Assembly: GCA_023246715.1 (NCBI GenBank)
Contig: JAHFHZ010000010.1
Span: 1-33,907, forward strand
Length of the DNA: 33,907 nt
Reading direction: 5' to 3'
DNA from: Candidatus Magasanikiibacteriota bacterium
GTDB taxonomy: Bacteria > Patescibacteriota > Patescibacteriia > Magasanikbacterales > GWA2-37-8
Positions 7,834 to 26,050 of this stretch are shown piece after piece (positions within the stretch are counted from its first letter, which is position 1; every line of letters begins with the position of its first letter). Position numbers and translations under genes: made by a program. Under the pieces are notes generated by a model. The model ran no database searches. It was given only the letters and a program-made list of their open reading frames with translations, and was not told the origin of the DNA.

Positions 7834-9201
7834 ATGGGGAAAAAACTCTTTGAAGGATTTTTTAAGGCTCCCGCTCAAATGCTCGACAAAACAGTCAAAC
7901 TAACGCTTGAAGCGGAGCATCAATTAATCAACAAACGTCCGTTCAAAGTAGTACAGGAATATGCCAATACGCTCGGCCCCGGGCTCACCACCGGCGCTGC
8001 CGATGACGATCCCTCGGGCATCGCCACTTACTCGCAAATTGGCGCGGGTTTCAATTTCAGGCTTATCTGGCTCACTTTGTTTTCGTTCCCTTTCATGTCG
8101 GTGGTACAGGAAATGTGCGCCAGAATCGGCTTGGTCACCGGACGCGGCCTGGCAGGCAATATGCGGCTGCATTACTCGCGCAAAGTCCTCTACGCCGTAA
8201 CATTGCTCCTATTCATCGCGAACACCTTAAACCTGGGCGCCGATCTGGGGGCCATGGCCGCGGTGACCAAATTACTTTTTCCTGGAGCGTCAATTATCCT
8301 GCTGATCATCGGCTTTGGGCTCGCCAGCCTTTTACTGCAAATCTACACGACCTACGCTCGGTACGCTAAAATTCTTAAATACCTTACCTTAGCGCTGTTT
8401 TCATACGTCTTTACCGCTTTTGCGGTAGGGATTAATTGGGGCGAAGTTTTACGGCACACGTTAATCCCATCGTTTAACTTTGGTCGCGCCGAAACCCTCA
8501 TGCTCTGCGCTTTTTTGGGAACGACAATTTCGCCCTATCTATTTTTTTGGCAAACATCTCAAGAAGTCGAAGAAGAAATTCTCAAAGGCCGGACTACCCT
8601 GGCCGCGCGCCGCGGAGCGGCCCCGGAAGAAATTAAAAAAATGCGCATTGATGTCTGGAGTGGAATGTTTTTTTCCAACTTAATTGCTTTTTTTATCATC
8701 GCGGCCTGCGCGGCCACCTTATTCGCCAACGGAATCACCACCATCACCACGGCCGACCAAGCGGCCTCGGCCATCCGGCCCTTTGCTGGTGAACTCACGT
8801 ACTTCTTCTTTGCCGCCGGCATTATTGGCACCGGGCTGTTGGCAATCCCCGTGTTGGCTGGTTCCAGCGCCTATGCCATTTCCGAAAGTTTTAGCTGGCG
8901 CCACGGCCTCTACCGAAAACTGCATCAGGCCTATTCTTTCTACGGAATCATTATAATCTCCGTAATAGTAGGCGTTATCGAAAACTTGTTGCATATTGAT
9001 CCCATTAAAGCCCTCCTGTACTCGGCCATTGTCAACGGGCTCATCGCCCCCGTTATGATATTTTTTATCGTTCGCATTAGCGGTAAAGAAAAAATCATGG
9101 GCGAGTGGAAAAATAGCCCGCTTGCTGGCGCTCTGGGTTGGATTATTCTAATCCTTATGGCTCTTTCTGGCGTAGCCGCCATAACCTCACTGGTGCTATA
9201 A
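7834..9201 (+). CDS. NRAMP-like divalent metal transporter, atypical motifs
   Basis: GPGLTTGAADDDPSGIATYSQIGAGF (TM1 DPxx motif) and LGTTISPYLFFWQTSQEVEEE (TM6); multiple TM segments. Confidence 0.83.
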   Translation: MGKKLFEGFFKAPAQMLDKTVKLTLEAEHQLINKRPFKVVQEYANTLGPGLTTGAADDDPSGIATYSQIGAGFNFRLIWLTLFSFPFMSVVQEMCARIGLVTGRGLAGNMRLHYSRKVLYAVTLLLFIANTLNLGADLGAMAAVTKLLFPGASIILLIIGFGLASLLLQIYTTYARYAKILKYLTLALFSYVFTAFAVGINWGEVLRHTLIPSFNFGRAETLMLCAFLGTTISPYLFFWQTSQEVEEEILKGRTTLAARRGAAPEEIKKMRIDVWSGMFFSNLIAFFIIAACAATLFANGITTITTADQAASAIRPFAGELTYFFFAAGIIGTGLLAIPVLAGSSAYAISESFSWRHGLYRKLHQAYSFYGIIIISVIVGVIENLLHIDPIKALLYSAIVNGLIAPVMIFFIVRISGKEKIMGEWKNSPLAGALGWIILILMALSGVAAITSLVL

Positions 9202-9303: not shown

Positions 9304-9807
9304 ATGAATAAAAAATTGTTACTAAGTTTTTTTGTTGCCGGGCTTATCGTGGCCGGATTGGGCTGTAACAAAAAAACCGACCCTACTCCAAACACAAACG
9401 ATACCACCGCCACCGTTCCAGACACAGCCAGTACCACCACGCCAAGCACAGACGACGTTACTACTGTTGACGCTGTAGTCAAAGGCGGCGCCACCGCTCC
9501 GCAAAATAGCGGCGGCACCCATGTTGTGCCAACCCAGGATTACACCAGCGCGATCGCTCAATATGGCAAATCTGGCTTCCGTTTTCAATTCGTCAACTGC
9601 ATTAGTACACCAATTAAATTAACCATGAAAAAAGGGGTAAAATTCATGCTCGATAATCGCGACAACAAGGCGCACGCCATGGCCGTTGGGAAAACCCGGT
9701 ACCTGCTTCGCCCGTATGATTTCGCTATTGTCAGCATTCAAAAACCTGGTACGTACGATATCACCTGCGACAGCTTCAATCGAGCCAGCGTAAATGTCCA
9801 AGAATAA
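9304..9807 (+). CDS. Lipoprotein with cupredoxin-like C-terminal domain
   Basis: Lipobox VAGLGC; Thr/Asp-rich linker; FMLDNRDNKAHAMAVGKTRYLLRPYDFAIVSIQKPGTYDITCD resembles a cupredoxin beta sandwich. Confidence 0.6.
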   Translation: MNKKLLLSFFVAGLIVAGLGCNKKTDPTPNTNDTTATVPDTASTTTPSTDDVTTVDAVVKGGATAPQNSGGTHVVPTQDYTSAIAQYGKSGFRFQFVNCISTPIKLTMKKGVKFMLDNRDNKAHAMAVGKTRYLLRPYDFAIVSIQKPGTYDITCDSFNRASVNVQE

Positions 9808-9814
9808 AAGAATA

Positions 9815-9846
9815 TTAAAAATGAAGCTTATCAAGCTTCATTTTTA
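9815..9846. terminator. Bidirectional terminator between the lipoprotein and folK
   Basis: AAAAATGAAGCTT-atc-AAGCTTCATTTTT, perfect stem with A/T tails on both sides. Confidence 0.85.
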
Positions 9847-10333
9847 ATTGACCGACCCAAACCCTCACCCCTGCCTTCCCCGCTACTTCCTGCAGTAATT
9901 CGCCAATAGGTCTCTGAAGTACTGGATGCACCGCGTCTGGAGCAATCTCACCGAGCGGCACGAGTACAAAAGCGCGCTCAAACAACCTCGGATGTGGTAT
10001 GGTAAGGACTTTTGTTTCTAAAACCAATTTGTCGTACAACAAAATATCAATATCAATTGGCCGCGGCCCAAAACGAACGCTCGGCGCTCGCCCCAGACGC
10101 CCTTCAATACCTTTTACTGCCACCAGCAACGCCTCGGGTAAAAGTTTTGTTTCGGCGCTAAGCACTAAATTTAAAAATCGCGGTTGAACCTCATAGTCAA
10201 CCGGATCGGTCTCGTAGACGCGAGAAACGGCTGTGATCTGGCAAAATTCAGTCAAAGCAGCCAAAGCTTGCCGTAAAAAATTCTCGCGGTTGCCTTGATT
10301 AGAACCCAAACTCAAAAAAATCCTACTGGGCAT
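9815..10333 (-). CDS. folK: 2-amino-4-hydroxy-6-hydroxymethyldihydropteridine pyrophosphokinase
   Basis: MPSRIFLSLGSNQGNRENFL, FLNLVLSAET, RFGPRPIDIDILLYD, IPHPRLFERAFVLVPLGEIAPD; start chosen at internal Met (10333) matching the family N-terminus. Confidence 0.93.
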   Translation of the reverse strand: MPSRIFLSLGSNQGNRENFLRQALAALTEFCQITAVSRVYETDPVDYEVQPRFLNLVLSAETKLLPEALLVAVKGIEGRLGRAPSVRFGPRPIDIDILLYDKLVLETKVLTIPHPRLFERAFVLVPLGEIAPDAVHPVLQRPIGELLQEVAGKAGVRVWVGQLKMKLDKLHF

Positions 10334-10697
10334 AATCCCCTCGGGAACGCGTAATTTGTACCCCTGCCCAAGCCCCGCCGCGTGGTAAAAGCGGACCCGG
10401 CTTTTTAAGCACAAACTTAATCTGCTGCACCATCAAAAATCTCTCAAACAACAGTTGCGTAACTTTCTCGGCCAGTGTTTCGATCAACACATACTCCTGG
10501 CCGACAAAATGCTCACGTAAAAAATCATGCGCTTCTAAATAATTAACTGTTTGAGCCAAGTCATCGGTTTGAGCCGCTGGTCGCAAGTCCAGGCCAAATT
10601 CGATATCCAAAATAATTGCCTGGGTAAAGGCTCGTTCCTCGGTTAATTCGCCAACCCGACAGGCAAACTGGCAATCCCTCATGATCAAAGAGTCCAT
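10323..10697 (-). CDS. folB: Dihydroneopterin aldolase
   Basis: FACRVGELTEERAFTQAIILDIEFGLD...DLAQTVNYLEAHDFL...YVLIETLAEKVTQLL...KKPGPL. Confidence 0.88.
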   Translation of the reverse strand: MDSLIMRDCQFACRVGELTEERAFTQAIILDIEFGLDLRPAAQTDDLAQTVNYLEAHDFLREHFVGQEYVLIETLAEKVTQLLFERFLMVQQIKFVLKKPGPLLPRGGAWAGVQITRSRGDYAQ

Positions 10698-10706
10698 AAG
10701 TACAAA

Positions 10707-11510
10707 TTAAACGGCGTTAGCGATCGCGTCTGCCACGGTTAAGGCCGCTCGGCACTCCGCCACGTCATGCACGCGGATGATAGTAGCCCCATTTTGCGCG
10801 CCGACCACCGCGGCGGCAATTGTTCCGGGTAAACGCTCATCAGTCGGCAAGCCCGTGAGCGTGCCGATAAAAGACTTGCGCGAAGGCCCAATCAAAATTG
10901 GAAAGCCAAACTCGGCAAAGGAACGCAGGTGTTTAAGCAGTGATAAGTTGTGTTCAACGGTTTTGCCAAAACCAATTCCTGGGTCAAGAATTAAGTGGTG
11001 TATACCTTCCGCGCGGCAGAGTCTAATTTGTTGTTCAAAAAACTCCCGCACCTCAGACACCACATTGGTATACCGAGGGTGCTGTTGCATGGTGCGGGGG
11101 GTTCCCTGCATATGCATAATCACCACGGGTACGCCAAACCGCGCGGCTACCGCGCGCATTTGGGGGTTAACTAAACCAGTAATGTCATTTAAAATAGCCG
11201 CCCCGGCCAAGAGGGCTCTTTCAGCCACTTGGCTTTTGCAAGTATCAATCGATACTGGAATAGAGAGTTCTCGACGCAAGATTTCAATAATCGGCACCAC
11301 GCGGCGCAATTCTTCTTCGGCGGTTATACTGCCTGCTCCCGGCCGACTACTCTCTCCACCAATATCAATAATGTCCGCGCCGGCGGCAGCCATCGCCCGC
11401 GCTTGATCCAAGGCTGCTTCAAATGCAAAAAAACGTCCGCCATCCGAAAAAGAATCCGGCGTAACGTTCAACACCCCCATCAAATAAGTTTTATGAGGAA
11501 GAAATTCCAT
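10707..11510 (-). CDS. folP: Dihydropteroate synthase
   Basis: LMGVLNVTPDSFSDGG, DIIDIGGESSRPGA, SIDTCKSQVAERAL, NDITG, LDPGIGFGKTVEHNLSLL, GPSRKSFIG, RVHDVAE. Confidence 0.96.
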   Translation of the reverse strand: MEFLPHKTYLMGVLNVTPDSFSDGGRFFAFEAALDQARAMAAAGADIIDIGGESSRPGAGSITAEEELRRVVPIIEILRRELSIPVSIDTCKSQVAERALLAGAAILNDITGLVNPQMRAVAARFGVPVVIMHMQGTPRTMQQHPRYTNVVSEVREFFEQQIRLCRAEGIHHLILDPGIGFGKTVEHNLSLLKHLRSFAEFGFPILIGPSRKSFIGTLTGLPTDERLPGTIAAAVVGAQNGATIIRVHDVAECRAALTVADAIANAV

Positions 11511-11527
11511 TGACTCTGCCGATCAAA

Positions 11528-12211
11528 CTAACACGTCAGCGCTTCTGGCACGCACGCCCGGCAGACACCGGTCAAAAAATTCCATAAAGCATCCCGGCCA
11601 GCAACTACCGCCGCGCGTGCTGATTGCTTGGCCTCGGGCGTAGCGGACCGTTCGTCGATAATCTGCCACCAAGCCGCCGCGTGTTCGGCGTCCAAGCCCT
11701 GGTGTACCCGGAAAAAGGCCGTGCCGCGTTCAGCGGTAACTCCATAATATTTGGCCAGCCCTTGTAGCTTACTCCCCGCCACTTCAGGAATTTGTGATTC
11801 ATACGCCGCCAAAGCCGATACTCCGGCCAAGGTTGACTCGCCAGCCAATCGTTCAAAAGTAGCAATTGCCTCGCGTGTTTCAGGAAGCTGATCGCTTTGT
11901 TCAACCATATCACGCTCTGCCCCGACCGCCTCGGCAAAGCGCAGCCAGAGCTCACGATGATTAGCCGGGCCATGCTCTTCATCATACATATTGTCGGTAA
12001 TCACCTGGCGTTCAGCCGGGTTATCGCAATCCGTATGAATTCTGCTTAAAAAACGAGGAAAATTTCGCTCTAAGTGGTAATACTGTTCGGCATAGTGTTT
12101 GAGGGCGCTCGGCGGCAGCGTACCCGCCTCCCACATTCGATAAAAAGGATGTTGTAGTAAATGCTTCTCGGCAATTAATTCTTTAAGCTCGGCGATAAAA
12201 AGAGTATTCAT
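11528..12211 (-). CDS. CADD-like (TenA/PqqC-fold, non-heme dimetal) putative para-aminobenzoate synthase
   Basis: HPFYRMWEAGTLPPSALKHYAEQYYHLERNFPRFLSRIHTDCD...DNMYDEEHGPANHRELW...AYESQIPEVAGSKLQGL...FFRVHQGLDAEHAAAW; start chosen at MNTLF (12211); next to folP/folB/folK. Confidence 0.85.
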   Translation of the reverse strand: MNTLFIAELKELIAEKHLLQHPFYRMWEAGTLPPSALKHYAEQYYHLERNFPRFLSRIHTDCDNPAERQVITDNMYDEEHGPANHRELWLRFAEAVGAERDMVEQSDQLPETREAIATFERLAGESTLAGVSALAAYESQIPEVAGSKLQGLAKYYGVTAERGTAFFRVHQGLDAEHAAAWWQIIDERSATPEAKQSARAAVVAGRDALWNFLTGVCRACVPEALTC

Positions 12212-24908: not shown

Positions 24909-25595
24909 GTGCCTATGGCTGTCTACGTGATTCAAAAATGCGCCATCTCGCTTGACGGTTACTTGAACGATGCTTCTGGAAAACGCCTGCTTATTTCCAA
25001 CGCAGCTGATTTCGATCGGGCTGATCAAGTGCGCGCGGAGGTTGATGCAATCCTGGTTGGCGCCGGCACTGTTCGCTCCGACGACCCTCATTTAACGGTG
25101 AAATCCAAAAAATATCGCGCAATACGCCGCGCCAAAGGGCGCCCCAGCAATCCGCTTAAAATTATCCTGACCAATAGCGGTAACCTATCGCCCGATAAAA
25201 AAGTTTTTGCCGACGGCACACCAAAACTAGTTTACTGCCCGAACACTAAACGTGTTCAATTACATAAACTCCTTGGCCCCCTGGCCGAAGTAGTAGCCAG
25301 CGGCAAATCCCGCCTTAATTTGGTACAGATTATTGCCGATCTGAATGAGCGTGGCATCAAAAAACTGCTCATCGAAGCAGGCAGCTCAATCGGCGCCGCG
25401 TTTTTGGAAGCCGGATTAGTAGACGAACTTCAAATTTCAATCGCCCCATTTTTTATCGGTGACCAAAAAGCTCCATATTTTTTTGGTGGTAAAAAGATTC
25501 TTCACGGGCCTCGGCAGCCCATGAAACTAATCCGGGAAGAAAAACTTGGCGATATGATACTGCTGACTTATTGCCTAAAACGTTCTACCCTATGA
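24909..25595 (+). CDS. RibD C-terminal-like (DHFR-fold) reductase
   Basis: CAISLDGYLNDASGKRLLISN, VDAILVGAGTVRSDDPHLTV, LIEAGSSIGAAFLEAGLVDELQISIAP. Confidence 0.88.
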   Translation: MPMAVYVIQKCAISLDGYLNDASGKRLLISNAADFDRADQVRAEVDAILVGAGTVRSDDPHLTVKSKKYRAIRRAKGRPSNPLKIILTNSGNLSPDKKVFADGTPKLVYCPNTKRVQLHKLLGPLAEVVASGKSRLNLVQIIADLNERGIKKLLIEAGSSIGAAFLEAGLVDELQISIAPFFIGDQKAPYFFGGKKILHGPRQPMKLIREEKLGDMILLTYCLKRSTL

Positions 25596-26050
25596 TTCAG
25601 GAGACAAATTTTGAACTACTACTACAAGCCATTGAGCTATCCAAAAAATGTCCGCCATCCAAGGACGCTTTCTCGGTCGGGGCGATTCTACTGGATGCTA
25701 CTGGTAATAAAATTGCCAACGGATATAGCAGGGAAAACGGTCCAAAAGAGCATGCTGAAGAAGTAACGCTGTCTAAGGCAACAAAAAGCGGCCAAAACAC
25801 CCGTGGCGGAACAATGTTTTCATCGCTTGAACCCTGTGGTAAAAGACTTTCCGGTAAAACCAGCTGTGCCGAATTACTCATCGCCGCTGGGGTTAGCCGG
25901 GTGGTTTATGCCCTGGCTGAGCCACCCACTTTCGTAGCGCCAACCGGCGATAGCAAGCTGCGAGCGGCCGGAATAGAAGTAATAATCCTGCCGGAATTGG
26001 ACGCGGCAGCACAAGCTATTAATAAACACCTCGCCTGCCCGAACACCTGA
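25592..26050 (+). CDS. RibD N-terminal-like zinc-dependent deaminase
   Basis: HAEEVTLSKA ... SLEPCGKRLSGKTSCAELLIAAGVSRVVYALAEPP; ATGA overlap with upstream stop; start at MIQET (25592). Confidence 0.85.
   Translation: MIQETNFELLLQAIELSKKCPPSKDAFSVGAILLDATGNKIANGYSRENGPKEHAEEVTLSKATKSGQNTRGGTMFSSLEPCGKRLSGKTSCAELLIAAGVSRVVYALAEPPTFVAPTGDSKLRAAGIEVIILPELDAAAQAINKHLACPNT

What the first reader, a model, noticed from the sequence alone, without database searches (positions are those of the whole stretch)
9815..12211. Folate cluster with a CADD-like self-sacrificing pABA synthase candidate next to folP-folB-folK
Seen: the 11528..12211 product aligns by eye with chlamydial CADD. With numbering from MNTLF it has Y24 (HPFY), Y40, E78, H85, E138, K148, H170, D174, H177. 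These match, with a constant offset of 3-4, the Tyr27, Tyr43, E81, H88, E142, K152, H174, D178, H181 set I recall for CADD (metal ligands, sacrificial Tyr, and the Lys proposed as amino donor). Established: Chlamydia CADD (CT610) makes pABA from its own Tyr instead of using PabA/B/C, its gene sits near folate genes, and a related Nitrosomonas protein can replace pab genes. Inference: this genome uses a CADD-type single-turnover route to pABA, probably with no pabABC. The full folK-folB-folP-CADD linkage in a probable CPR bacterium would be notable.
Basis: partly seen in the sequence, partly recalled or inferred. Interest (0 to 1): 0.87.

Follow-up and report, generated by a model that had tools for sequence, protein, structure and literature searches.

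The report
Self-sacrificing pABA synthase in folate operon
A tiny-genome candidate-phylum bacterium carries, first in a tight folate-gene operon, a protein of the family that makes the vitamin building block pABA by cutting up its own tyrosine and lysine, and it lacks the normal pABA genes; the enzyme family is known, and what is new is finding it as the apparent pABA route in this group.

Summary
Window 12211-9815 (- strand) is a tight operon: CADD-family protein, folP, folB, folK (gaps 17 and 9 bp, then an 11 bp overlap). The first protein scores 239 bits against TIGR04305 (cut-off 200) but only 61 against PqqC (cut-off 240). It is closest in the PDB to Nitrosomonas and Chlamydia pABA synthases. 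The genome (a relative of Ca. Magasanikbacteria MAGs) has folC, folA and RibBA. It has no chorismate-binding enzyme, hence no PabB, and neither folE nor folE2. In 12 genomes tested, folP occurs exactly where CADD does (5 of 5 versus 0 of 7). In 380 phylum genomes all nine strong CADD carriers have folP. The enzyme combines Tyr (CADD Y141 site) with Phe (Y170 site), which predicts Fe/Fe or cambialistic metal use. Activity is inferred, not shown, and the pterin source is unresolved. Verdict: new member of a known kind, in a new lineage. In passing: a folP-linked sister clade keeps both sacrificial residues but has Glu142 changed to Lys and part of the metal site removed; it deserves its own study.

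The parts
11528..12211 (-). CADD-family self-sacrificing pABA synthase candidate (227 aa; Y24 and K148 sacrificial residues; metal ligands E78, H85, E138, H170, D174, H177)
   Evidence: TIGR04305 239 bits; PDB 9pj4 E 4e-47, 1rcw 1.5e-39; AlphaFold2 model pLDDT 96.7, best PDB matches CtCADD 8va9/1rcw TM 0.89-0.90, rmsd 1.3-1.6 A
10707..11510 (-). folP, dihydropteroate synthase (the enzyme that uses pABA)
   Evidence: TIGR01496 334.8 bits, cut-off 162.6; only copy in the genome
10323..10697 (-). folB, dihydroneopterin aldolase
   Evidence: TIGR00525 74 bits, cut-off 72.15; PF02152 E 6e-24
9815..10333 (-). folK, HPPK
   Evidence: TIGR01498 128.3 bits, cut-off 54.1; overlaps folB by 11 bp
9814..9848 (-). 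16-bp inverted repeat followed by a T-rich tail at the folK end, probable terminator of the operon (shared with the + strand gene that ends at 9807)
   Evidence: terminator-like sites in general are no commoner than in shuffles, but this stem is by far the longest; found as an inverted self-match

Best explanation
The gene at 11528-12211 encodes a CADD/PabS-type heme-oxygenase-like dimetal oxidase. It makes p-aminobenzoate in a single-turnover reaction: O2 activation at the dimetal site oxidises its own Tyr24, whose side chain is cleaved off to form the aromatic carboxylate, and Lys148 supplies the amine. The pABA goes to FolP, encoded 17 bp downstream, and then through FolC and FolA to tetrahydrofolate, so the organism needs neither chorismate nor PabABC for it. 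The Tyr137/Phe166 pair next to the metals predicts an Fe/Fe or cambialistic (Fe/Fe and Mn/Fe) enzyme rather than a strict Mn/Fe one. Family membership, residues, operon and missing PabB are shown here; catalysis, metal use and flux are inferred.
For: Profile, sequence and fold membership with all catalytic residues. Tight operon CADD-folP-folB-folK, kept as CADD-folP-folB-folK in G009 and G018, folC-CADD-folP in G064 and CADD-folP-folK in a Verrucomicrobia MAG. No PF00425 protein in G000 or 11 relatives, while 14 of 14 controls ring and 31 of 380 phylum genomes do have one, so the search works in this phylum. FolP is present in 5 of 5 CADD genomes and 0 of 7 without CADD (Fisher P 0.0013). In 380 phylum genomes 9 of 9 strong CADD carriers are among the 38 with FolP (4e-10, not corrected for relatedness). 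The reaction is shown for CADD and NePabS, and the NePabS F148Y variant (Tyr/Phe combination) is cambialistic (PMC11965152).
Against: No assay. The genome is 92.8% complete and in 44 contigs, so absences are not absolute (four CADD-bearing relatives of 94-99% completeness also lack PF00425). folE and folE2 are missing, so the pterin supply is uncertain. Independence of the co-occurrence is limited: the nine strong carriers fall in three families.
Confidence: 0.87

Rival explanations
1. The protein is an ordinary PqqC- or TenA-like member of the fold (PQQ or thiamine salvage) that happens to sit by folate genes.
For: It shares the PF03070 and PF14518 domains with TenA/PqqC, and PqqC is the next structural neighbour.
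Against: PqqC scores 61 bits against a cut-off of 240, while CADD scores 239 against 200. The sacrificial Tyr/Lys and the dimetal ligands are present, whereas a PqqC row lacks them. It co-occurs with folP.
Confidence: 0.02
2. It is a CADD homologue that no longer makes pABA; the cell takes up pABA or folate from its host, and the operon serves salvage.
For: The organism lacks folE and folE2. Nine phylum genomes have FolP with neither CADD nor a chorismate-binding enzyme, so FolP can exist with an outside pABA source. Rickettsia have degraded CADD genes (PMC5615194).
Against: All catalytic residues are intact and conserved in its relatives at 51-63% identity. The operon is kept across genera. 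FolP is present only where CADD is in the 12 genomes tested.
Confidence: 0.09
3. pABA synthesis is right, but the pathway upstream is Chlamydia-like: GTP is opened by RibA (GTP cyclohydrolase II) rather than FolE, and the product is diverted to dihydroneopterin before FolB. (This adds to the best explanation rather than excluding it.)
For: RibA-type proteins are present in G000, G018, G064, G022, G121, G285, G351 and G184. RibD parts lie in the window at 24909-26050. FolE and FolE2 are absent from G000 and the other four order-level CADD genomes. A RibA bypass in Chlamydia is recalled from the literature, not read here.
Against: G009 (99% complete) has CADD-folP-folB-folK but neither FolE nor RibA. 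RibBA also serves riboflavin. TrpF, FolQ and PTPS were not searched.
Confidence: 0.3

Closest known systems
CADD / CT610 of Chlamydia trachomatis (PDB 1rcw, 8va9)
   Same: Fold (TM 0.89-0.90, about 35% identity), all metal ligands, sacrificial Tyr27 and Lys152, linkage to folate genes, absence of PabABC
   Different: Phe at the Tyr170 site (predicts Fe/Fe or cambialistic, not strict Mn/Fe); standard folC instead of the CofE-like folC2; a Patescibacterium rather than an intracellular chlamydia
NePabS / NE1434 of Nitrosomonas europaea (PDB 9pj4)
   Same: Best PDB hit by sequence (E 4e-47); same ligands, Tyr25 and Lys159, Phe at the F177 site
   Different: Tyr instead of Phe at the F148 site; sits in a folate operon, whereas ne1434 lies next to glyA (PMC11965152)
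CADD genes of Ca. Magasanikbacteria G009, G018 and G064 (L105, L104, L106)
   Same: 60-63% identical, same residues; operons CADD-folP-folB-folK or folC-CADD-folP
   Different: Next to pdxS-pdxT in G009 and G018; no folB or folK beside it in G064

Membership tests
CADD/PabS self-sacrificing pABA synthase | Scores above the curated cut-off of TIGR04305 fol_rel_CADD | tested here: met
   239.2 bits vs 200
CADD/PabS self-sacrificing pABA synthase | Sacrificial Tyr (Y27) and Lys (K152) | tested here: met
   Y24 and K148 align; invariant in A2 and A3
CADD/PabS self-sacrificing pABA synthase | Three His / three carboxylate dimetal site | tested here: met
   E78, H85, E138, H170, D174, H177
CADD/PabS self-sacrificing pABA synthase | Same fold as CADD | tested here: met
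   AlphaFold2 model vs 1rcw/8va9, TM 0.89-0.90, rmsd 1.3-1.6 A
CADD/PabS self-sacrificing pABA synthase | Host lacks chorismate-based pABA synthesis | tested here: met
   No PF00425 in G000; PabA and PabC not searched separately
CADD/PabS self-sacrificing pABA synthase | Makes pABA from its own residues with O2 and metal | not testable with these tools
   Needs expression, complementation and mass spectrometry
CADD/PabS self-sacrificing pABA synthase | Mn/Fe preference through Tyr141 and Tyr170 (CADD subtype only) | tested here: inconclusive
   Y137 present, Y170 site is F166; predicts Fe/Fe or cambialistic by analogy with NePabS variants
PqqC (pyrroloquinoline-quinone synthase) | Scores above TIGR02111 cut-off | tested here: not met
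   61.2 bits vs 240
TenA thiaminase II | Match to TIGR04306 salvage_TenA | tested here: not met
   No match at E<=0.001

The most novel reading that the evidence does not exclude
Within Patescibacteria the CADD family has gone beyond a dimetal enzyme. A sister clade (L148, L159, L162, L169), linked to folP in two members and to a folC2-like gene in one, keeps the sacrificial Tyr27 and Lys152 but replaces ligand Glu142 with Lys, replaces Asp178 with Asn in three of four members, and loses His181. On this reading it still supplies pABA with a mononuclear or metal-free site, a parallel to the metal-free class Ie ribonucleotide reductases, where metal-binding glutamates are replaced, one of them by Lys. 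The window's own enzyme would be the intact type next to it.
Probability: 0.15. Interest if true: 0.85.

Novelty: new member of a known kind. Interest (0 to 1): 0.52.

Why it matters
Most Patescibacteria surveyed here lack dihydropteroate synthase (342 of 380) and presumably depend on outside folate; a recent survey of CPR folate genes considered folA, glyA and folD and does not mention folP or pABA (PMC11974145). An O2-dependent, protein-derived pABA source that comes and goes together with folP gives a concrete, testable picture of how some of these reduced genomes keep folate synthesis without a chorismate branch. It also offers a set of natural variants (Tyr/Phe near the metals, the D178E family, the E142K clade) for working out an unresolved reaction.

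Tried and rejected
PqqC and TenA identity were rejected on profile, residues and fold. Weak TIGR04305 hits in the phylum (18-40 bits; G216, G230, G247, G268, G322, G345, G444) and in G038 and G074 were set aside as other members of the superfamily; the seven in the phylum sample have no FolP. One IMG/VR contig with a partial 37% match (L185) was not pursued. Promoter scans found nothing above shuffled expectation, and Rfam found only the tRNA. Testing whether CADD and chorismate-binding enzymes exclude each other among FolP genomes gave no significance (6 of 9 with CADD lack the enzyme, against 9 of 29 without CADD; P 0.12), because three carriers of the divergent f89 type also have such an enzyme, possibly TrpE.

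Full report
Observation. The region 9815-12211 on the minus strand holds four genes in the order CADD, folP, folB, folK, with gaps of 17 and 9 bp and an 11 bp overlap. The ATG at 12211 is preferred over an upstream GTG (12256), because homology begins at residue 5 of the ATG form. NCBIfam assigns all four above their curated cut-offs, folB narrowly. A 16-bp inverted repeat with a T-rich tail closes the operon at 9814-9848.

Identity of the first protein. It scores 239 bits against TIGR04305 (cut-off 200) and 61 against PqqC (cut-off 240). Among PDB sequences the nearest are Nitrosomonas 4-aminobenzoate synthase and Chlamydia CADD, far ahead of PqqC. An AlphaFold2 model (pLDDT 96.7) matches CtCADD at TM 0.89-0.90 and rmsd 1.3-1.6 A.

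A detail with predictive value. CADD has Tyr at positions 141 and 170 near the metals and prefers Mn/Fe; NePabS has Phe at both and uses Fe/Fe; its F148Y variant, with Tyr and Phe, is cambialistic (PMC11965152). The window's enzyme has Tyr137 and Phe166, the same mixed pair, as do most of the family members fetched here. I therefore predict Fe/Fe or cambialistic use.

Genome. The window is contig C6 of a 1.06 Mb, 92.8% complete genome. G000 has one folP, a folC (C7), a folA next to a thyA (C42) and RibBA (C24). It has no chorismate-binding enzyme (control 14 of 14), no folE and no folE2. RibD-type genes lie in the window at 24909-26050. The pABA branch is thus accounted for by CADD alone, while the first step of the pterin branch is not. 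RibBA could replace FolE, as I recall for Chlamydia, but G009 lacks RibA as well, so this is open.

Co-occurrence. Among 12 genomes searched for FolP, it is present in the five with CADD and absent from the seven without. In a spread sample of 380 genomes of the phylum, strong CADD matches (at least 126 bits) occur in nine, all among the 38 with FolP; weaker matches never coincide with FolP. The nine fall in three families, so the number of independent events is small. Of these nine, six have no chorismate-binding enzyme, including all three that exceed the TIGR04305 cut-off. Three of the divergent f89 type have one, which may be TrpE. Nine FolP genomes have neither, so outside pABA or a further route must exist in the phylum.

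Operons and descent. The order CADD-folP-folB-folK recurs in G009 and G018 (with pdxS and pdxT nearby, named by eye), folC-CADD-folP in G064, and CADD-folP-folK in a Verrucomicrobia MAG. In the protein tree the window's gene groups with the Magasanikbacteria genes. Around them stand Woesearchaeota, Gracilibacteria, Peregrinibacteria/Peribacteria and the Verrucomicrobia gene in one clade (100/99), apart from the large Ignavibacteria/Bacteroidota set. This suggests lateral transfer among small-genome archaea and bacteria, but long branches make it tentative.

A sister clade with an altered metal site. L159 (G022), L148, L162 and L169 form one clade (100/100) on a long stem. They score 181-198 bits against TIGR04305, just under the cut-off. 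They keep Y27, Y43, E81, H88, K152 and H174, but E142 is Lys in all four, D178 is Asn in three, and H181 is lost with a four-residue deletion; a His one residue further on could partly stand in for it. The L159 model keeps the CADD fold (pLDDT 95, TM 0.89 to 1rcw) with a break in the helix that carries the missing ligands. In L148 the gene lies between folP and a CofE-like folate gamma-glutamate ligase (TIGR04132, 218 bits, cut-off 350), with folA and thyA nearby. G022 has no chorismate-binding enzyme. Mononuclear HDOs that lack two ligands of the third core helix are known (PMC13108848), and class Ie R2 proteins replace metal-binding glutamates, one of them by Lys, and work without metal (PMC11846895). 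Whether this clade still makes pABA is unknown.

What is known and what is new. [quoted passage not shown] I found no paper in the held library on CADD in Patescibacteria; that library lacks most subscription journals. The window is therefore a new, well-supported member of a known kind in a new host group. Catalysis, metal use and pathway flux remain to be shown.

Noticed in passing
L148:5974-6660, L159:3162-3833, L162:5995-6663, L169:5977-6651: CADD clade with Glu142 changed to Lys, Asp178 to Asn (three of four) and His181 lost, but sacrificial Tyr27 and Lys152 kept; next to folP in L148 and L159 and to a folC2-like ligase in L148. Possible mononuclear or metal-free pABA synthase.
   Followed up: partly
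L043-L048 (family f89 genomes G351, G275, G382, G184, G407, G359): Divergent CADD-like proteins (126-143 bits) with a glutamate dehydrogenase-like gene (named by eye) rather than folate genes beside them; in the three aligned (L043, L046, L047) Tyr and Lys are kept, Asp178 is Glu, and Leu or Met stands at the Tyr141 site. All six genomes have folP; three also have a chorismate-binding enzyme.
   Followed up: partly
L107, L108 (Woesearchaeota MAGs), L109 (Verrucomicrobia MAG): Archaeal and verrucomicrobial CADD genes 54-56% identical to the window's, inside the same clade; L109 has CADD-folP-folK. Suggests lateral transfer.
   Followed up: partly
G000, G009, G018, G064, G022 (whole genomes): All have folP but neither folE nor folE2; four of five have RibA, G009 has none. 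The source of the pterin is unexplained.
   Followed up: partly
phylum sample: G098, G111, G139, G142, G197, G306, G336, G343, G384: Nine genomes with folP but neither CADD nor a chorismate-binding enzyme: pABA uptake or a further unknown route.
   Followed up: no
window 7834-9201: Nramp-type metal transporter gene about 0.6 kb from the operon's 3' end (one gene between), possibly Mn/Fe supply; a link to CADD is speculation.
   Followed up: no
window 24909-26050: RibD C-terminal (reductase) gene followed by a separate deaminase gene, possibly a split riboflavin RibD.
   Followed up: no
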